Below, in pieces: positions 6,404-14,629 of a stretch of 14,629 nt of DNA. Source of the stretch: Desulfuromonas sp. SDB (lineage in GTDB: Bacteria; SDB-A); contig LKUE01000223.1 in NCBI GenBank assembly GCA_001412365.1, positions 1 through 14,629 on the forward strand. Direction: 5' to 3'. The translations under genes were made by a program, and so were the position numbers. Below the pieces are notes generated by a model. The model was not told the origin of the DNA and made no database searches. It worked only from the letters and a program-made list of their open reading frames with translations. The first letter of the stretch is position 1. Every line of letters begins with the position of its first letter.

Positions 6404-6551
6404 CGACAACGCTCGAATCGAGCAAACTCCAATGAACTTGTCGCCGCGCGCTGATTCGCGAGCGACAACAAGTCATTGGAGCGGAAATGTTCGTCGCTTA
6501 CAGACTTGCGGTCTGACGCTCCGGGCATGCCGCTCAACTCGGCCGTTAGGA
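6404..6551 (+). repeat. attC-like recombination site 1
   Basis: The right end is an R' box GTTAGGA (6545-6551), with predicted cleavage after G6545. The L' arm CCGCTCAA (6530-6537) pairs with TTGGAGCGG (6476-6484) except for one extra G, the extrahelical-base signature of attC bottom strands. The matching left AAC is at 6467-6469 (CGACAAC), giving an 89-nt core at 6463-6551. The same CGACAAC box also occurs at 6404-6410, followed by an arm at 6408-6423 that pairs partly with the right end, allowing a 148-nt alternative. Inner hairpin: CAGAC...GTCTG near 6501-6515. The L'-spacer-R' text GCTCAACTCGGCCGTTAG is very like classical 59-base elements. Confidence 0.72.
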
Positions 6552-6563
6552 CTTAAGTATAAA

Positions 6564-7256
6564 ATGGCAACATTTGATGTAATAGAAACAAAAATTACAA
6601 ATATCAAATCCATTATGCTTGCTTACTCGACCGATGGCAGAACCAACGACCAGCCACAACAGTATCAAGAGGTATATATAGAGCTTGATATTCTATTAGA
6701 AGATGCAGGCTATGCTAACCCAAACAAGTATAAGACTATCGAACAATTCTGGAAAGATTGCGGTGAAACTTGGGCATCGCGAAGAGAGCTTATTGGGAAC
6801 ATATATGCTGATATTCTTTTTGATATTGGCAGGAAAAAGAAAAAATTGAAAGAACCGCGAAATTGGAAAAATGCAAATGATTCTTTAACCGATAAGCTTT
6901 CCCCCGTCAGGTCGCAATGGTTAAAAGCAATGAATTTTATCCATGCCTCACCACCGGACTATGAAAATTCGATTAAGGAGTCAGTTAATTCGATTGAATC
7001 CTGTCTAATGATATTGCTGAACCAGCCAAAAGGAACGCTTGGAAAGTTGATAAAAAATCAAGAGGTTGATGCTGATATTGGTAAAATAATTAGTCAAGTT
7101 TATGGTCTCTGTAGTGACAAAGATTTTGTACGCCATGGTGGTACACGGAATCAGTCAATTGGAAAATTCGAAGCTGAGTTCTTTTTAGATTTTGCTGCAT
7201 CATCTATTATTTATATAAAAGGGAAATTAACCGAATGTCCTGACAAGGCAAATTAA
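6564..7256 (+). CDS. Cassette 1: Abi_C/HEPN-like putative abortive-infection protein
   Basis: A 230-residue protein. The start is ATG 6564, 18 nt inside the cassette; extension to an upstream ATG at 6432 would translate the attC site and is rejected. The C-terminal half (from about residue 132) follows the helical pattern of abortive-infection C-terminal/DUF7014-type HEPN domains: YENSIKESVNSIESCLMILL, TLGKLIK, then SDKDFVRHGGT with Arg190-His191 and FEAEFFLDFAASSIIYI. The N-terminal half is helical, basic (GRKKKKLKEP) and unrecognised. Known relatives are phage-defence or toxin RNases or RNA-binding domains; whether this one is catalytic is uncertain because the usual R-x4-6-H spacing is not clear. 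Its TAA lies inside the left box of the next attC. Confidence 0.72.
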   Translation: MATFDVIETKITNIKSIMLAYSTDGRTNDQPQQYQEVYIELDILLEDAGYANPNKYKTIEQFWKDCGETWASRRELIGNIYADILFDIGRKKKKLKEPRNWKNANDSLTDKLSPVRSQWLKAMNFIHASPPDYENSIKESVNSIESCLMILLNQPKGTLGKLIKNQEVDADIGKIISQVYGLCSDKDFVRHGGTRNQSIGKFEAEFFLDFAASSIIYIKGKLTECPDKAN

Positions 7257-7345: not shown

Positions 7346-7975
7346 ATGATTGCATCTAATAATGATTTGTCACTAAAAAATAAATGGCTTGAAGTATACA
7401 ATTCGATAGTACGGCTGAAATTTTATACATACCTTGAAATGACAAACAGTCAACTCATTAAAGAATTAGACCGTGAATTCACTCTTTTTGTAAATAACTA
7501 TGTTGGTATTCAAGATAATAATTTAAGGTTTTTCGGTGGAAATACATTAATTGGCTTCTCCTATTTGGTACTGGTTAGAATGTTTGAATGCCTAAAAAAG
7601 CATTTCGACAAAACGCAAATCGATGAATTATTCAAAACCTCAGATTGGCAGGCAATAGGCATTAATCAATTTTCCGATTTTACAAATAAATATCGGATTA
7701 CTATTGCTTATCTTGCTGAGACTAAAAATAACAGAACTAGATACTATAACTCTGATACAGAAAAATTAGTCTTTTTCATGAACAAGATACGGAACTCAAT
7801 TAGTCATTATAGATATGAGCATCCGGACATGTTGTCGATTAGATTGACAGACGTAAAAATAAAAAAAAAGCAAGAGAAAATTGAACTTGATATAACAATG
7901 CCGTATGCAGGATTTATAAATTTTTGCGCAGACATAGGATGCATCATTAATGACACCATAAAAGATCGTTTATAA
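7346..7975 (+). CDS. Cassette 2: HEPN-motif protein (putative RNase/toxin)
   Basis: A 209-residue protein from ATG 7346, chosen because GAGG at 7333-7336 sits 9 nt upstream; ATG 7331 in the same frame gives 214 residues with a weaker AAGAG site. It is helical throughout, with MNKIRNSISHYRYE (R149 to H154 counted from 7346), which fits the R-N-x3-H (R-x4-6-H) catalytic motif of HEPN ribonucleases. The C-terminus is a KIKKKQEKIELDITM strand segment and a final helix. HEPN proteins with this motif are common in toxin-antitoxin and abortive-infection systems, cutting RNA on activation; that role here is inferred. No separate antitoxin ORF is visible in the cassette. The TAA at 7973-7975 lies inside the left box of the following attC. 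Confidence 0.7.
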   Translation: MIASNNDLSLKNKWLEVYNSIVRLKFYTYLEMTNSQLIKELDREFTLFVNNYVGIQDNNLRFFGGNTLIGFSYLVLVRMFECLKKHFDKTQIDELFKTSDWQAIGINQFSDFTNKYRITIAYLAETKNNRTRYYNSDTEKLVFFMNKIRNSISHYRYEHPDMLSIRLTDVKIKKKQEKIELDITMPYAGFINFCADIGCIINDTIKDRL

Positions 7976-8126: not shown

Positions 8127-8870
8127 ATGTCAGTAACATATAGCAGGATAAATCAAATTTTTATTTCAAGGCTCCGAAGACTTGAAGAATCTATCAGGGA
8201 ATCTTCTAATATCGTTCATGATGCCACCAAAGGTGCATTAAGAGAGGCTTACCTAAGAGATTTTTTAAACGATATTATGCCTCCAAATCTATCTATAGGA
8301 TCAGGATTTATTTGTGATTGTTTTGGCACCATTTCACCACAAATTGACTTCATACTTGCAGAAAAAAACCAAATTCCATCAATTGCACTAATGGAAAATA
8401 TAGCTTTAATTCCAGTTGAGACAGCATTGTTGGCAATAGAAATGAAATCAATTATCAAATCGAACACCAAAGATCAATTGCAAAAACAATATGATGAATT
8501 TAATAAAATGAAACCTGTTGTTGTTGTCCAACCCGGAGAAGAGATAGAGCAAACAAATAACTTTCCAATACTCCTAAGCCTAATTGCACTTGAATCTGAA
8601 GTAAAAAAAGAAACACTTGTTGAATGGTTTAAAAGTATACCAACACTGCTCAACATTTGCATAATAGGTAAATACTCTATCAAAATAAAAAAATATGGCA
8701 TCAGTGATTGTGAAATCATCAAAGGTGCTAATTATATTGAAACTTTAAATTACTTTTCTGTAGTGATTAATAACTGCTATGATAATTTAGAAAAAAGAAG
8801 GAAATTAACATACGGACGGGGTTTTGGTCGTTCATGGATTCCTTACATCGTCGGACATCAAAATGTGTAA
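8127..8870 (+). CDS. Cassette 3: DUF6602-like PD-(D/E)xK nuclease-fold protein
   Basis: A 247-residue protein; ATG 8127 follows AAAAAGGG with about 6 nt spacing. The N-terminal region has HDATKGALREAYLRDFLNDIMPPNLSIGSGFICDCFGTISPQIDFIL and then VETALLAIEMKS, a pattern matching DUF6602. In it, Glu40, Asp74 and the Glu105-x-Lys107 pair have the order and spacing of a PD-(D/E)xK nuclease core (E...D...ExK). The C-terminal half is unassigned and ends in a basic, aromatic tail (KRRKLTYGRGFGRSWIPYIVG). Nuclease activity is an inference from residue spacing only. DUF6602 proteins are poorly characterised and often sit near restriction or defence genes, as here. The stop is 13 nt before the left box of the next attC. 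Confidence 0.72.
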   Translation: MSVTYSRINQIFISRLRRLEESIRESSNIVHDATKGALREAYLRDFLNDIMPPNLSIGSGFICDCFGTISPQIDFILAEKNQIPSIALMENIALIPVETALLAIEMKSIIKSNTKDQLQKQYDEFNKMKPVVVVQPGEEIEQTNNFPILLSLIALESEVKKETLVEWFKSIPTLLNICIIGKYSIKIKKYGISDCEIIKGANYIETLNYFSVVINNCYDNLEKRRKLTYGRGFGRSWIPYIVGHQNV

Positions 8871-8883
8871 TAAGAATTAAAAA

Positions 8884-9013
8884 ATATAACAATTGACTTT
8901 ACTTGACCTCAAGGGCTATGTGGCTTTTCGAGTTTTGAAACTCGCAGTAAGTTATTTTGGTTAGTTAAAATTTGTGCCCCGCAACTTGTGGCAGGTAAGC
9001 AAAAACGTTATAC
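8884..9013 (+). repeat. attC-like recombination site 4 (best formed)
   Basis: Left box ATATAAC (8884-8890) and right box GTTATAC (9007-9013) pair at six of seven positions. Inner arms TTACTTGACCTCAA (8899-8912) and TTGTGGCAGGTAA (8986-8998) pair along their whole length with one extra A on the left arm, one G-T wobble and one mismatch. The spacers between box and arm are 8 nt on both sides. An internal perfect hairpin (CGAGTTT-TG-AAACTCG, 8929-8944) lies in the variable part. Symmetry, one extrahelical base and size (130 nt) all fit attC. It is the last site before the GC-richer restriction operon, whose first ATG is 28 nt after the site. Confidence 0.72.
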
Positions 9014-9040
9014 CGATAATACAAAAGGCACAGTAAATAC

Positions 9041-12000
9041 ATGAATTCAAATTTATCATTTATCACCAACGAAGAAAATCAGAGCCTCAAAGAGAGATTC
9101 AGGACTCTCATCAAGGACACGTCTTTTTTTGATTGTCTTGTTGGATACTTTTACTCCAGCGGTTTTTACACTGTCTATCCAGCCCTTGAGAATACCGACA
9201 AAATACGAATCCTGATCGGCATCAGCACAAACCAGCAAACTTTTAACATGATGGAGCAGGCAAATAAACAAACACAATCCGTGTTTGATTTTTCCCATGC
9301 CGAAGCCAAACAGGAAATTGAAAATCTTATCGAAAACGAAATGGCTGATTCCGAAGACAACCGAAACGTTGAAGAAGGCGTTTATACCTTCATGGATTGG
9401 ATCAAAAACGGGAGGCTGGAAATCAGAGCTTACCCTTCTCAAAAGATCCATGCCAAACTCTATATTATGACTTTTCGAGAAGGCGACCGCGACACCGGCC
9501 GGGTCATCACCGGTTCAAGCAATTTTACCCAGTCGGGTCTGGTCGATAATCTGGAATTCAATGTGGAGTTGAAACGCCCCGAAGATTACGAATTTGCATT
9601 GAAAAAATTCAACAAATTGTGGGAAAGAGCAGTCGATGTCAGTGAAAAATATGTGCAGACGATACAGGAAAAGACCTGGTTGACCAAAAACATATCGCCC
9701 TACCAGCTCTACTTGAAATTCCTTTATGAATATTTCAAGGATGAACTCAGCCAGGGGGATGAGGTTTTCATTAAATATCTGCCTCAGGAGTTCAAGAAGC
9801 TGGAATACCAGGAGCAGGCGGTTTTGAATGCCAAAAAAATTCTTCTGGAATATGGCGGTGTGTTTATCTCTGATGTTGTCGGGCTCGGCAAAACCTACAT
9901 CTCAGCCATGCTTGCCGCTCAACTGGACGGCAGAACCCTTGTCATCGCGCCGCCCGTTCTTTTGGAAAAATCCAATCCGGGTTCCTGGCTCAATGTATTT
10001 TCAGACTTCAGAGTACCCGCGGATTTTGAATCACTCGGAAAACTGGATGATCTTTTAAGCAGGGGGACAGATAAATATACCAATATCATCATAGACGAAG
10101 CCCACCGTTTCCGCACGGAAACAACCATCACCTATGAAAAACTGGCGGAAATATGCCGGGGTAAGCGGGTGATCCTGGTGACGGCGACGCCTTATAATAA
10201 TAGACCTCAGGATATCCTGAGCCTGCTCAAGCTGTTTCAGAAAGCCCAAAAAAGCACCATCCCGAATCTTCCCGACCTGGAATCCTTTTTCGGAAATCTC
10301 GAAAAGAAACTAAAGAAACTGGATCGGAAGAAAGACTATGATGAATACATCAGCACCGTCAAAAGGAACGCACGGGAAATCCGGGACAAGGTATTAAAAT
10401 ACTTAATGGTTCGCCGCACCCGGACCGAAATCGAAAAATATTTTAAAAAGGATATTGAGGAGCAGGGGTTGAAATTTCCCCAAGTCGAAAAACCAGCACC
10501 CCTTTTTTATGAATTGAACGACAGGGAAGACGAAATATTTAATAACACCATTGACCTGATCGCCAATAAGTTCAGATACGCCCGTTACATGCCTATGCTG
10601 TATTATGAAGGCAAGATCGATCAACTTGAAGCGCAGTCCCAGCTTAATATGGGGCGGTTTATGAAAATCCTGCTGGTCAAGCGGCTGGAAAGCAGTTTTT
10701 TCGCCTTCCGCAATTCGGTGAACAGATTCATATATTCCTATGAAATGTTCCTCAATGAATTGAATAACGGATTTGTATATGTTAGTAAAAAGCATACCAA
10801 CAAGATATTTGAAATGCTGGAAAACGACGATGACGAAGCGATTCAACGGCTGATTGATGAAGGCAAGGCGGAAAGATATGACAGTAAGGACTTCAGGGAT
10901 GACCTGAAAACAGATCTTGAGCATGACCTTGAAATCTTAAGAGAGATTAAACGTCTTTGGAAGCAGGTGCGACGGGATCCCAAATTGTTGCGTTTCAAAG
11001 ATGAGCTTTCCCGAAACAGCATATTAAATGACAGTCACCTGATTATCTTCACCGAATCAAAAGAAACTGCCGGTTACCTGTATAAAAACATAGATCTGCA
11101 ATATCCCGGAAAAGTTCTTTTATTTACCGGGGATTCAGGCGAATCCGTTCGGGATAAAGTTATTGAAAACTTTGATGCCCGGGCTCGGCATAAAAAGGAC
11201 GATCACCGCATATTGGTTTCCACCGAAGTTCTCTCCGAAGGCGTTAACCTGCACCGCGCCAATGTGGTGATCAATTATGACATTCCCTGGAACCCGACCC
11301 GCATGATGCAGCGGGTAGGCCGCATCAACCGTGTGGATACGCCTTTTGATACTATCTACACCTTTAATTTTTTCCCCACGGTACAGTCCAATGACCAGAT
11401 TAAATTAAAAGAAGCCGCGGAAGGCAAAATCAACGCCTTTCTAACCCTGCTTGGCGGGGACGCGGAGCTGTTGACCGAAGGGGAACCGATCGGTTCCCAT
11501 GAACTTTTCGACCGTCTGATTTCAAGAAAAACAGTGGAAGGAGACGGCGAAACAGAAGAAAGCGAATTGAAATACCTGCACGCGATACGGGAAATCAGAG
11601 AAAACCACCCGGACCTCTTTGAGCAGATTAAGCGACTTCCAAAAAAAGCCCGCACTGCCAAAGCAAACAAGGATTACCCGGACGCGTTGATTACCTACTT
11701 CCGGCGAGGAAAGCTGCAAAAGTTTTTTATGGCGCATGCTGTAAACGCAGCCGTAGAACTGGACTTCATGGCCGCCGCCACTCTTCTTGAGAGCAAGTCG
11801 GATGAAAAAAAGAAAAACCTACCCGCGCATCTATATGATCTTCTGGATAAAAACAAAGAAGCCTTTATCATCGCCACCACTGAGGAAATGGCGGAACCAA
11901 AAAAGAAAGGGGGCCGGGACAGCACTGCCAATATACTTCGGATTCTGAAAGCAACGCTGAAAAACACCCAAATATTCACCGATGATCAGGAACTCTACCT

Positions 12001-12262
12001 GAAAAAGGTATTGACCCAGCTTGAGGAAGGCGGTCTGCCCAAACATACCGCCAAAAACACCTTAAAAGCGCTTAACGGCCTTGGCCAGGATCTGGTTAAT
12101 CCCTTCAAGGTTCTGGCGGTTTTGCAGAAGCACATTCCCAAACGGCTACTGCAAAGCCATTACGCGGAACAAAATCCGGACCTATGCGACAAGGGTGAAG
12201 TCATACTATCATTATACCTGTCTGCATGCGGGTACGAGCAGGCAGGTCCGGCAGAGGAATAA
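9041..12262 (+). CDS. PLD-domain SNF2-type DEAH helicase
   Basis: A 1073-residue protein. Domains: an N-terminal phospholipase D-like nuclease domain (about 1-210) with a single HxK half-site, IHAKLYIM (His137, Lys139) and GSSN at 158-161; then a superfamily 2 helicase with LEYQEQAV (Q-like), DVVGLGKT (Walker A, 278-285), IIIDEAHR (DEAH at 352-355) and VTATP (381-384); then a C-terminal RecA domain with LIIFTESKETAGYL near 667, STEVLSEGVNL near 728 and QRVGRINR near 757. About 300 further residues are helical and charged. One HKD motif implies dimerisation or a degenerate site. It leads an operon with AlbA_2 and Eco57I-type genes, so restriction or anti-phage DNA translocation is the likely role. 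The last residues (LSACG onward) are encoded by an interspersed palindromic repeat. AAAGG lies about 12 nt before the ATG. Confidence 0.88.
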   Translation: MNSNLSFITNEENQSLKERFRTLIKDTSFFDCLVGYFYSSGFYTVYPALENTDKIRILIGISTNQQTFNMMEQANKQTQSVFDFSHAEAKQEIENLIENEMADSEDNRNVEEGVYTFMDWIKNGRLEIRAYPSQKIHAKLYIMTFREGDRDTGRVITGSSNFTQSGLVDNLEFNVELKRPEDYEFALKKFNKLWERAVDVSEKYVQTIQEKTWLTKNISPYQLYLKFLYEYFKDELSQGDEVFIKYLPQEFKKLEYQEQAVLNAKKILLEYGGVFISDVVGLGKTYISAMLAAQLDGRTLVIAPPVLLEKSNPGSWLNVFSDFRVPADFESLGKLDDLLSRGTDKYTNIIIDEAHRFRTETTITYEKLAEICRGKRVILVTATPYNNRPQDILSLLKLFQKAQKSTIPNLPDLESFFGNLEKKLKKLDRKKDYDEYISTVKRNAREIRDKVLKYLMVRRTRTEIEKYFKKDIEEQGLKFPQVEKPAPLFYELNDREDEIFNNTIDLIANKFRYARYMPMLYYEGKIDQLEAQSQLNMGRFMKILLVKRLESSFFAFRNSVNRFIYSYEMFLNELNNGFVYVSKKHTNKIFEMLENDDDEAIQRLIDEGKAERYDSKDFRDDLKTDLEHDLEILREIKRLWKQVRRDPKLLRFKDELSRNSILNDSHLIIFTESKETAGYLYKNIDLQYPGKVLLFTGDSGESVRDKVIENFDARARHKKDDHRILVSTEVLSEGVNLHRANVVINYDIPWNPTRMMQRVGRINRVDTPFDTIYTFNFFPTVQSNDQIKLKEAAEGKINAFLTLLGGDAELLTEGEPIGSHELFDRLISRKTVEGDGETEESELKYLHAIREIRENHPDLFEQIKRLPKKARTAKANKDYPDALITYFRRGKLQKFFMAHAVNAAVELDFMAAATLLESKSDEKKKNLPAHLYDLLDKNKEAFIIATTEEMAEPKKKGGRDSTANILRILKATLKNTQIFTDDQELYLKKVLTQLEEGGLPKHTAKNTLKALNGLGQDLVNPFKVLAVLQKHIPKRLLQSHYAEQNPDLCDKGEVILSLYLSACGYEQAGPAEE
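12216..12247 (+). repeat. Coding palindromic repeat, copy A (32 bp)
   Basis: Arms ACCTGTCTGC (12216-12225) and GCAGGCAGGT (12238-12247) pair at nine of ten positions, with a G-T wobble at the tenth. It matches copy B2 (14154-14185), also 32 bp, at about 22 positions, including CCTGTCTGC and TGCGG. It encodes LSACGYEQAG at the very C-terminus of the helicase and ends shortly before the next gene's ribosome binding site. Confidence 0.7.
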
Positions 12263-12264
12263 AT

Positions 12265-13581
12265 ATGCCCGGTGAAGAAAACCACAATATCGAATACAAG
12301 CAGAAATGGAATGATGATTGCCTGAAAGCCATCTCCGCGATGGCAAATGCCAAAGGTGGAAGGCTTTTTGTCGGTCTCGACGACCAGGGGCATCCGGTCG
12401 AACTGAAAAATACAAAAAAACTGCTGGAAGACATTCCTAACACCATTAAGAACAGATTAAACATCTTGTCCATAGTAAAACTTGACAAAAAAGCCGGACA
12501 AAAGATCATCTGTATAACAATTTTGCCGTCTTCTATTCCGGTCTCGTTTAACGGCAAATACTACATCCGGAGTGGCAGTACAGTTCAAAAACTGCAGGGA
12601 AAGGAACTGGCCGACTTCCTTTTGAGCAAATCCGGCATTCCATGGGATAATTTTGTCGAAAAACATTCCACTTTCAAAGAACTTGAAGAGTCCACCATTG
12701 ATGAGTTTAAACGGTTTGCAACTGACCGAATTCCAGGGATTATCAACGAAACCAATTATTCAATGCTTCTGGACAAACTGAACCTTCAGAAAAATAAACA
12801 ATTGAAACGGGCTGCTGTTCTGTTGTTCGGCTCCGATCCGCAACGGTATTACAGCCATGCGGTGGTTAAAGTAGGCAAGTTTCTGACAGATACCGACATT
12901 CAAACAACCGACATTGTCAAAGGTAATCTTTTTCAGCAAGTCGAGAACACTTTGGAAATTCTTCGCGCAAAATACCTGCAAAGCCCTATTTCTTTTGAAG
13001 GCATCCATCGCAGAGACATTCTTGAATATCCTTATGAAGCCTTACGGGAGGCCGTCATCAATGCGCTGATTCACCGGGATTATCATGGTTTTTCACAAAT
13101 TCAAATACGGGTTTATCCGGACAGAATGATTATGATGAACGAAGGCGGTCTGCCGCCTGAAATCACAGTTGAAGACCTAAAAAGAAACCATCTTTCCAAA
13201 CCGCGTAACAAACTCCTCGCTGATGTTTTTTATTTTGCCGGATTTATCGAAGCGTGGGGCCGGGGAACGTTGAAGATTGTTGAAAAATGCCGCGACCAGG
13301 GTTTACCGGAGCCGGAATTCCACAATGATCACGGGGTAATGTCTGTTATTTTTTATAAAGATAAATGGAACGAAGAGACCCTAAAGAGGCTTGGGTTGAA
13401 CGATCGGCAGATTAAGGCTGTTTACTATATCAAGGAGCACGGCAAGATTACAAATTCAGATTATCAGAAGATTAACAATGTATCCGAACGAACAGCCTTG
13501 CGTGATCTTGACGATTTAATTCGAAAGGAGATTGTTCTGAAAAAAGGACAAAAGAAAGGGACCCATTATAACTTGGCGTAA
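12265..13581 (+). CDS. AlbA_2 (Schlafen-like) / GHKL ATP-binding / winged-helix protein
   Basis: A 438-residue protein. The start is ATG 12265, two nt after the helicase stop, with AGAGGAA about 7 nt upstream; a longer in-frame start at 12226 lies inside the helicase gene and is rejected. Domains: AlbA_2/Schlafen AAA-4 (about 5-125) with ENHNIEYKQKWND, AISAMANAKGGRLFVGLDDQG and YYIRSGSTVQKL; a GHKL-type ATPase-like C-terminal domain with EAVINALIHRDY (N box, about 262-273), MNEGGLPPE and EAWGRGTLKIVEKC; then a winged helix (378-438) with SERTALRDLDDLIRKEIV. Such proteins are found as putative transcription regulators or as parts of defence loci. The winged helix and the repeat cluster just downstream suggest it controls the next gene. 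Confidence 0.88.
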   Translation: MPGEENHNIEYKQKWNDDCLKAISAMANAKGGRLFVGLDDQGHPVELKNTKKLLEDIPNTIKNRLNILSIVKLDKKAGQKIICITILPSSIPVSFNGKYYIRSGSTVQKLQGKELADFLLSKSGIPWDNFVEKHSTFKELEESTIDEFKRFATDRIPGIINETNYSMLLDKLNLQKNKQLKRAAVLLFGSDPQRYYSHAVVKVGKFLTDTDIQTTDIVKGNLFQQVENTLEILRAKYLQSPISFEGIHRRDILEYPYEALREAVINALIHRDYHGFSQIQIRVYPDRMIMMNEGGLPPEITVEDLKRNHLSKPRNKLLADVFYFAGFIEAWGRGTLKIVEKCRDQGLPEPEFHNDHGVMSVIFYKDKWNEETLKRLGLNDRQIKAVYYIKEHGKITNSDYQKINNVSERTALRDLDDLIRKEIVLKKGQKKGTHYNLA

Positions 13582-13583
13582 TA

Positions 13584-13633
13584 GCGGATAAATGTCCGTT
13601 TTCTGGCGGATATGTCGGATATATGGCGGATAT
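13584..13633. promoter_or_regulatory. Cluster of CGGATA(T) repeats, candidate operator
   Basis: GGCGGATAT at 13605-13613, GTCGGATAT at 13614-13622 and GGCGGATAT at 13625-13633 follow a related GCGGATA at 13584-13590. An inverted partial copy (TGTCCG, 13593-13598) lies between them. They fill the 118-bp gap between a winged-helix protein gene and the restriction-modification gene. No good -35/-10 pair is evident. Confidence 0.45.
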
Positions 13634-13643
13634 TTTATTGCCA

Positions 13644-13703
13644 ATGAATGACGAGTCAAAAATAGAACAAAATCAGATACGGACAGAACAAGAGCAATTA
13701 TGA
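13644..13703 (+). CDS. Possible 19-codon leader ORF
   Basis: ATG 13644 opens a 19-residue, very polar ORF (starts MNDESKIEQNQ, rich in Gln and Glu) whose TGA overlaps the next gene's ATG in an ATGA junction at 13700-13703. The overlap is typical of translational coupling. There is no good Shine-Dalgarno before 13644, so this may be chance. Confidence 0.18.
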   Translation: MNDESKIEQNQIRTEQEQL

Positions 13704-14629
13704 ACAAGCAGCAGGCCCGGAATATCATCAAAGAAACCTTTGAAAACCGGTTTGACAAAGACCAGTTCACCGGTTTTGTCAGGAATCTTTTAAACCATAT
13801 TGAAGATGCCCCATTCACCTATAAGGGTAATTACATCCCGGAGAAATTTCGGCCATATATCAGATCCCTGGAGCGAATCGGCAAGTTCAGTGATGGGGAA
13901 AACAGCCTCGATATTCTGGTCATCACCCTGAAAAAAGAGACCTCCCTGGAACGCGCCCGCACCATGCAGCGTAATTTTATCGCCTGGTACTTAAACGGCA
14001 GCCGCGGCGGAGTAATGAAAGACGCCGCCCTGGTGGCCTATGTGTCCCCGGATCAGGCGGACTGGCGGTTCTCCCTGGTCAAGATGGATTACAAGTTTGA
14101 CCTGCCTGCGCCGCAAGCAGATGCGTCGCGGCAGGCAGGAAAGACCAAAACCGGCCTGTCTGCGTGCGGAACCACACAGGTAGGCAAAGTGAAGGTCAAA
14201 GAAGAATTCACCCCTGCCCGGCGCTGGTCGTTTCTGGTGGGTGCTAATGAAAAAAGCCATACCGCCCAGAGCCGCCTGGTGAAAATTCTTGCCGATGATG
14301 AGCATAATCCTACCCTTGCCCAACTGGAAAACGCCTTTGACATCGAAACCGTCACCAATGAATTTTTCTTAAAATATCGTGAGTTGTTTATACGCACAAA
14401 AGAAGAACTTGACAAAGTCATTGAACGAGATGCCAGAGTAAAAGCTGATTTCGAAGCCAAGGGGGTAGACACGGTCAACTTTGCCAAAAAACTGCTGGGC
14501 CAGATCGTGTTCCTCTATTTCCTCCAGAAAAAGGGCTGGTTCGGTGTGGGACGCGATGACGACTGGGGAACCGGATCAAAACATTTTCTACGTTCCCTCT
14601 TCGATAAAAAACACAGTGGCTATGACAAT
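13700..14629 (+). CDS. Eco57I-type restriction-modification enzyme, N-terminal part (3' end outside window)
   Basis: The frame is open to the window edge (310 residues). The N-terminus (MNKQQARNIIKETFENRFDK), LDILVITLKKETSLERARTMQRNFIAWYLNG, EEFTPARRWSFLVGANEKSHTAQSRLVKIL and NFAKKLLGQIVFLYFLQKKGWFGVG match the region ahead of the methylase in Eco57I/type IIG-like (PglX-related) enzymes, where nuclease and N6-adenine methyltransferase share one chain. The methylase motifs (NPPY and others) would lie to the right, unseen. Residues 135-162 are encoded by two palindromic repeats inserted in frame between KMDYKFD and KVKVKEEF, a place where relatives should run straight on. A weak AAGAG precedes the ATG. 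Upstream helicase and AlbA_2 genes are probably partners in the same system. Confidence 0.82.
   Translation, partial: MNKQQARNIIKETFENRFDKDQFTGFVRNLLNHIEDAPFTYKGNYIPEKFRPYIRSLERIGKFSDGENSLDILVITLKKETSLERARTMQRNFIAWYLNGSRGGVMKDAALVAYVSPDQADWRFSLVKMDYKFDLPAPQADASRQAGKTKTGLSACGTTQVGKVKVKEEFTPARRWSFLVGANEKSHTAQSRLVKILADDEHNPTLAQLENAFDIETVTNEFFLKYRELFIRTKEELDKVIERDARVKADFEAKGVDTVNFAKKLLGQIVFLYFLQKKGWFGVGRDDDWGTGSKHFLRSLFDKKHSGYDN
14101..14139 (+). repeat. Coding palindromic repeat, copy B1
   Basis: Perfect 9-bp arms CCTGCCTGC (14101-14109) and GCAGGCAGG (14131-14139) flank a GC-rich centre in which GCCGC and GCGGC add further complementarity. It is translated within the restriction-modification gene as LPAPQADASRQAG. 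It is separated from copy B2 by only 14 bp. Confidence 0.65.
14154..14185 (+). repeat. Coding palindromic repeat, copy B2 (32 bp)
   Basis: Imperfect palindrome with ends GCCTGTCTG and CAGGTAGGC. It is the same length as copy A at 12216-12247 and about 22 of 32 positions agree. It is read in the same codon register as copy A, giving LSACGTTQVG here against LSACGYEQAG there. Confidence 0.68.

What the first reader, a model, noticed from the sequence alone, without database searches (positions are those of the whole stretch)
12216..14185. A palindromic repeat inserted in frame in two defence genes and read in the same register
Copy A forms the C-terminal end of the helicase and copy B2 interrupts the restriction-modification enzyme. 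They are 32 bp long, agree at about 22 positions and encode LSACGYEQAG and LSACGTTQVG. A second palindrome type (B1) sits 14 bp from B2 and keeps the frame. Behaviour resembles the Rickettsia palindromic elements that insert inside coding genes, but in unrelated proteins here.
Basis: partly seen in the sequence, partly recalled or inferred. Interest (0 to 1): 0.68.

Follow-up and report, generated by a model that had tools for sequence, protein, structure and literature searches.

The report
Hairpin repeats inside imported defence genes
Three short hairpin-forming DNA repeats have inserted cleanly, without breaking the reading frame, into two anti-phage defence genes of a probably imported island; they belong to a REP-like repeat family seen in bacteria of many phyla, whose in-gene copies appear to sit mostly in defence genes.

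Summary
Confirmed, with a changed interpretation. Copies A (12217-12246, 30 bp), B1 (14101-14139, 39 bp) and B2 (14155-14184, 30 bp) are real. Homologues show each is a clean in-frame insertion without target duplication: A lengthens the helicase C-terminus; B1 and B2 flank the native KTKTG turn of a type IIG restriction enzyme, modelled as a disordered beta-hairpin loop. A and B2 are decayed copies of CCTGTCTGCGTGCGGACACGCACAGGCAGG, which occurs in Desulfobacterota, Brocadiaceae, Lentisphaerae, Verrucomicrobia, Acidobacteria, Bacteroidales and others, with up to about 110 copies of one variant in a single genome. B1 belongs to a sister subfamily. The host genome has no other copy; the island differs in G+C and nests among Desulfobacterota homologues, so the elements probably arrived with it (misbinning not excluded). 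A Bacteroidales relative carries B2 at the same site but lacks A and B1: stepwise insertion. The family is REP-like but lacks a GTAG/CGTC tag, and no linked transposase was found. Homology-supported intragenic copies elsewhere are mostly in defence genes (7 of 10 against at most about 11 of 100 background ORFs; small, post hoc). In-frame palindromes are known from Rickettsia and REP literature: a new variant of a known kind.

The parts
12217..12246 (+). Copy A: 30-bp type I palindromic element, in frame (LSACGYEQAG), extending the helicase C-terminus
   Evidence: Helicase homologues end REVILSLYLTGE*; removing 30 bp leaves LSLYPAEE*, the same length. 25/30 identical to the family consensus.
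14101..14139 (+). Copy B1: 39-bp type II palindromic element, in frame (LPAPQADASRQAG)
   Evidence: Exactly 39-bp gap in three homologues, including L253, which has B2; related 39-mer in L264 read DLPAPQSEATRQAG; fold z -3.9.
14140..14154 (+). Native 15-bp spacer (KTKTG turn) between B1 and B2
   Evidence: Corresponds to QTPTG / KTKTG in homologues.
14155..14184 (+). Copy B2: 30-bp type I palindromic element, decayed, in frame (LSACGTTQVG)
   Evidence: Gap in about 20 Desulfobacterota homologues; present at the same site in L253 in better preserved form.
9041..12262 (+). PLD-SNF2 helicase gene carrying copy A
   Evidence: Pfam PLDc_2, SNF2-rel_dom, Helicase_C; PADLOC HKD+Snf2 and DrmD-like matches.
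12265..13581 (+). AlbA_2 / HATPase_c_4 gene between the two, part of the same operon in relatives
   Evidence: Pfam; same gene order in L210, L215 and L253.
13700..14629 (+). N-terminal part of a type IIG restriction enzyme-methyltransferase, cut by the contig end, carrying B1 and B2
   Evidence: PADLOC REase_MTase_IIG 2.9e-132; model with a disordered loop at 136-170.
9000..14629 (.). Probably transferred island (left border approximate)
   Evidence: G+C 0.43-0.47 against 0.33-0.38 to the left; helicase nests among Desulfobacterota.

Best explanation
A, B1 and B2 are non-autonomous REP-like palindromic mobile elements that inserted, one at a time and without target duplication, into a defence operon, most likely while it resided in hosts where the family is active; the operon was then transferred into this low-G+C host, which has no other copy. 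Their lengths (30, 39, 30 bp) are multiples of three and the registers used hold no stop, so they add 10, 13 and 10 residues at tolerant places: the helicase C-terminal tail and a beta-hairpin turn of a type IIG enzyme. Shown: clean insertion, stepwise history, cross-phylum family, absence from the rest of the host assembly, predicted loop position. Inferred: transfer of the island, retained protein function, and mobilisation in trans by a single-strand-DNA (HUH/Y1-type) transposase that recognises the bulged hairpin. The last step is the weakest, about 0.5.
For: Homologue gaps at protein and DNA level; L253 has B2 but not A or B1 and is sister to the window helicase, support 100/99; no other host copy; G+C step; more than 117 stretches in many phyla and 1 to about 95 pattern matches per strand in 36 carriers with a control of almost zero; genome-specific variants, e.g. 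about 110 23-mers in G161; conserved two-base asymmetry of the arms and a DNA hairpin; copies inside other copies without duplication, L030 and L107; flank stems in 10 of 117 copies against 0.66 expected; disordered loop in the model; in-frame Y1 transposases with palindromes in the same helicase in L253 and L215.
Against: No GTAG/CGTC tag in the flanks; only 1 of 30 inspected Y1 loci has a palindrome nearby; two carriers have no Y1 match; no recurrent neighbour gene. The contig might be chimeric or misbinned; host origin of the left half could not be tested. Retained protein function is untested.
Confidence: 0.75

Rival explanations
1. The segments are native loop sequences of these enzymes that look palindromic by composition.
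For: The site in the type IIG enzyme is a variable turn; L219 has a longer unrelated loop there.
Against: Exact 30- and 39-bp gaps in homologues and identity of the core to a family found in many phyla.
Confidence: 0.03
2. The elements were copied within this host, which once had an active family and has since lost all other copies.
For: All three copies lie within 2 kb of one contig.
Against: Three family relatives have no strict match; B2 is shared with a Bacteroidales operon, so it predates this host; G+C step.
Confidence: 0.1
3. Contig or bin artefact: the island belongs to another organism of the sample and was binned or joined wrongly; the insertions are real but not in this host.
For: G+C step and absence of other copies; assembly of 433 contigs with 3.9% estimated contamination.
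Against: The step lies inside one continuous contig, and defence islands with foreign composition are common (general knowledge).
Confidence: 0.2
4. The insertions are adaptive: the added residues alter the specificity or regulation of the defence enzymes and are kept by selection.
For: Homology-supported intragenic copies are mostly in defence genes (against 68); the same registers recur.
Against: Tail and disordered-loop positions suggest tolerance; B2 is decaying; frequent transfer and relaxed constraint of defence genes would give the same bias.
Confidence: 0.08

Closest known systems
GTAG- and CGTC-tagged REP elements, including intragenic copies (PMC3733652)
   Same: 20-40 bp imperfect palindromes, dispersed, mostly intergenic, some translated in frame in genes, DNA repair proteins and helicases among them.
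   Different: No conserved GTAG or CGTC tetranucleotide next to the hairpin; one core sequence in many phyla; no linked RAYT seen.
Rickettsia palindromic elements (Claverie and Ogata; cited in PMC3733652, originals not readable here)
   Same: Palindromes inserted in frame in unrelated proteins, with clean homologue gaps.
   Different: Not in Rickettsia; shorter than RPE-1 as described; RPE-4 and RPE-6 are CGTC-type REPs according to PMC3733652, and no such tag is present here.
REPIN/RAYT systems and TnpA-REP (PMC8266576)
   Same: Bulged hairpin as the candidate unit recognised in single strands; in-frame Y1 transposases with GTAA-type palindromes occur in the same helicase in relatives.
   Different: Those flanking palindromes are another family; no Y1 gene is linked to CCTGYCTGC elements in 29 of 30 loci.
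[quoted passage not shown]
   Same: Non-autonomous, dispersed, inverted-repeat structure.
   Different: Far shorter than the 70-300 bp given in PMC3733652, and no target-site duplication at the three junctions examined in detail.

Membership tests
GTAG-tagged REP | Conserved GTAG tetranucleotide 5' of the hairpin | tested here: not met
   Flanks of 129 copies: information 0.02-0.34 bits at -4 to -1, no GTAG.
GTAG-tagged REP | 20-50 nt imperfect palindrome with hairpin potential | tested here: met
   30-mer consensus folds at -9.2 kcal/mol as DNA, z -2.8.
GTAG-tagged REP | Association with a RAYT (Y1) transposase gene | tested here: not met
   1 of 30 Y1 loci within the fetched 1.6-3.4 kb holds a palindrome; 66 further Y1 matches were not inspected.
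CGTC-tagged REP | Conserved CGTC tetranucleotide at one end | tested here: not met
   No such tag in the flanks of 129 copies.
Rickettsia palindromic elements | In-frame insertion in unrelated genes, shown by homologue gaps | tested here: met
Rickettsia palindromic elements | Sequence membership in a described RPE family | not tested
MITE | Target-site duplication | tested here: not met
   Junctions of A, B1 and B2 compared with homologues show none.
REP-like element (mode of action) | High-copy amplification of genome-specific variants | tested here: met
REP-like element (mode of action) | Cleavage and transfer by a single-strand transposase | not testable with these tools
   Needs biochemistry.

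The most novel reading that the evidence does not exclude
CCTGYCTGC elements are an undescribed, cross-phylum family of untagged REP-like elements moved by an unknown single-strand transposase; together with in-frame Y1 transposase genes they accumulate, translated, inside anti-phage defence genes, so that defence islands carry them between phyla.
Probability: 0.4. Interest if true: 0.75.

Novelty: new variant of a known kind. Interest (0 to 1): 0.55.

Why it matters
It shows with clean empty sites how small mobile palindromes become protein segments, orders successive insertions within one operon, and gives a sequence tag for tracing the transfer of defence islands between phyla. It also raises two testable questions: why in-frame insertions seem to gather in defence genes, and which enzyme moves an element that has no known tag.

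Tried and rejected
Linked RAYT: 30 Y1 loci inspected, one palindrome. Recurrent neighbour gene: none; the largest cluster, an RpoD-like sigma factor in 5 loci, is probably incidental. Plasmid, phage and E. coli collections: no copy of the 30-mer; the island DNA has no plasmid match. A narrow type II pattern in viral contigs: none. Literature searches for the exact sequence or its peptides: no relevant paper; the library lacks most subscription journals, and the Rickettsia original was not held. PDB fold search of the type IIG N-terminal model: nothing significant. Rfam and tRNA scans of the window: nothing. A helicase C-terminal alignment failed on frame coordinates and was replaced. Host origin of the left half of the contig: the test gene was absent from the relatives, so uninformative.

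Full report
OBSERVATION. A (12217-12246) and B2 (14155-14184) are identical at 22 of 30 positions and are read in the same register, LSACGYEQAG and LSACGTTQVG. B1 (14101-14139) is 39 bp and is separated from B2 by 15 bp. The core pattern is rarely expected by chance in the window (2 matches against a mean of 0.14). A and B1 fold better than shuffled sequence as single strands; B2 no longer does.

THEY ARE INSERTIONS. Homologues of the restriction enzyme in the phylum of G015, a Desulfobacterales MAG, read MDYKFE-QTPTG-RMKVKEEF where the window reads MDYKFD-[LPAPQADASRQAG]-KTKTG-[LSACGTTQVG]-KVKVKEEF. At the DNA level the B1 gap is exactly 39 bp in all three sequences aligned, and the B2 gap is exactly 30 bp in the two that lack it. 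Helicase homologues, about 76% identical over 1062 residues, end REVILSLYLTGE*; the window ends GEVILSLYL-SACGYEQAG-PAEE*, and without the 30 bp it would end LSLYPAEE*, the same length. No target duplication is seen at these junctions.

STEPWISE HISTORY. The Bacteroidales locus L077/L253 (G031) has the same operon. It carries B2 at the identical site as CCTGTCTGCGTGCGGAGACGCACAGGCAGG (29/30 to consensus, against 26/30 in the window), lacks B1, and its helicase lacks A. In the helicase tree the window is sister to L253 (81% identity, support 100/99), and this pair is sister to two sequences from the Desulfobacterota sample. B2 therefore most likely predates the split of these two operons, while A and B1 came later in the window lineage.

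HOST. The host assembly (3.14 Mb, 433 contigs) has no other copy with a strict or a loose pattern. Its three family relatives have no strict match, and only one of them has loose matches, 1 and 2 per strand. G+C steps from 0.33-0.38 to 0.43-0.47 near 9000. The simplest reading is that the island arrived already carrying the elements. A binning or assembly chimera is not excluded. I tried to test host origin of the left half with one gene; it was absent from the relatives, which says nothing either way.

THE FAMILY. Those titles are nearly all MAGs, but G077 has two exact copies on a contig of more than 2 Mb, which speaks against a fragment artefact. In 36 carriers the loose pattern is found 1 to about 95 times per strand; symmetrical copies count on both strands. 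A strict search finds type I in 34 of 395 genomes of the phylum of G015. The termini CCTGTCTGC and GCACAGGCAGG are kept while the centre varies between genomes, for instance about 110 copies of a 23-mer in G161. B1 represents a second subfamily, CCTGCCTGCGCCG...CGGCAGGCAGG, with a close relative in L264 read DLPAPQSEATRQAG. In both subfamilies one arm has two extra bases, which predicts a bulge; I read this from the sequences and did not test it.

WHERE COPIES SIT. By spanning open frame, 24 of 134 sampled copies fall in ORFs of at least 200 residues with 30 residues on each side, so most are probably intergenic. I then asked which spanning ORFs match known families. In my reading ten genes have copies inside the homologous region: seven defence genes (HmaB and HmaC in L128, BrxC in L026, HsdS in L038, the type IIG enzyme in L077, HmaC in L264, a type III restriction enzyme in L152) and three others (HGD-D dehydratase in L136, DnaG primase in L164, an EAL protein in L178). 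Among 100 background ORFs of the same loci at most about 11 match PADLOC models at 1e-20; I estimated that number from family counts. Fisher's exact p is 9e-5 for 7/10 against 11/100. A second count, 5/12 in an earlier gene list held to the 1e-20 cut-off, gives 0.014. These p-values need caution. I drew up both gene lists by hand after seeing the pattern and tried two ways of counting. L152 is at 3e-17, weaker than the background cut-off, and L077 is counted by homology to the window. Two genes come from one locus and genes are treated as independent. I take it as a lead that needs a blind recount. In the same way, 11 of 13 homology-supported copies are in the sense orientation, read LSACG or CLRA and never PVCVR (p about 0.01 each, post hoc).

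MECHANISM. Shown: clean insertion without target duplication at the three sites, a conserved asymmetric hairpin, genome-specific amplification, and copies that interrupt other copies (L030, L107). Flanks of 10 of 117 copies form a stem around the insertion against 0.66 expected. These fit insertion of a single-stranded hairpin by an HUH/Y1-type enzyme, as proposed for REPs; TnpA-REP enzymes depend on a GTAG motif and a bulge to varying degrees (PMC8266576). Inferred and unproven: the enzyme itself. No tag, no palindrome near 29 of 30 inspected Y1 genes, no recurring neighbour and two carriers without a Y1 match weaken the direct RAYT version.

RELATED IN-FRAME ELEMENTS. In L253 and L215 the helicase of this same operon contains a Y1 transposase domain with palindromes on its flanks, at the same site and in frame; similar Y1 domains lie in DUF1156, HsdR and methyltransferase genes of L254-L258. 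Those flanking palindromes are of another, GTAA-type family, but they show that REP-type elements do enter these genes in frame.

KNOWN OR NEW. In-frame palindromes are known in Rickettsia and as intragenic REPs, with DNA repair genes and helicases among the targets (PMC3733652). I found no paper that prints this sequence, but the library is incomplete. I class it as a new variant of a known kind: it works like a REP, but I do not file it with the GTAG or CGTC REPs, because their defining tags were tested and not met.

Noticed in passing
L253:3213-3926; L215:1470-2144: A Y1 (RAYT-like) transposase domain with palindromes on both flanks is inserted in frame at the same site of the helicase of this operon in two genomes.
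   Followed up: partly
L254:1615-5235; L255:2370-6218; L256:2729-6457; L257:4604-6832; L258:1416-3002: Y1 transposase domains in frame inside Eco57I, DUF1156, HsdR and methyltransferase genes of other genomes.
   Followed up: partly
L253:7205-7255 and 7511-7537: Further GTAA-type palindromes read VTQASSLNDHRQDACVT and IHRQDACAT in frame in the type IIG gene of the Bacteroidales relative.
   Followed up: no
L210:7934-7963: A close homologue of the type IIG gene (G078) has a type II palindrome in frame at another site.
   Followed up: partly
L264:72-2984: An HmaC-like ORF holds three in-frame palindromes, one of them a 39-mer like B1.
   Followed up: partly
L128:3708-7181: A DUF1156/HmaB gene with two palindromes also holds a GIY-YIG domain and a Y1_Tnp match.
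   Followed up: no
window 8127-8870: ORF with matches to NucC and PD-DExK nuclease models.
   Followed up: no
window 6432-7256: ORF matching the candidate defence family PDC-S32.
   Followed up: no
L055, L066, L101 (and viral contig L020): Almost the same sequence flanks the palindrome in MAGs named Verrucomicrobia, Lentisphaerae and Armatimonadota: shared DNA or misbinning.
   Followed up: no
L030, L079, L092, L116, L132: An RpoD-like sigma factor gene lies near the palindrome in five loci.
   Followed up: no
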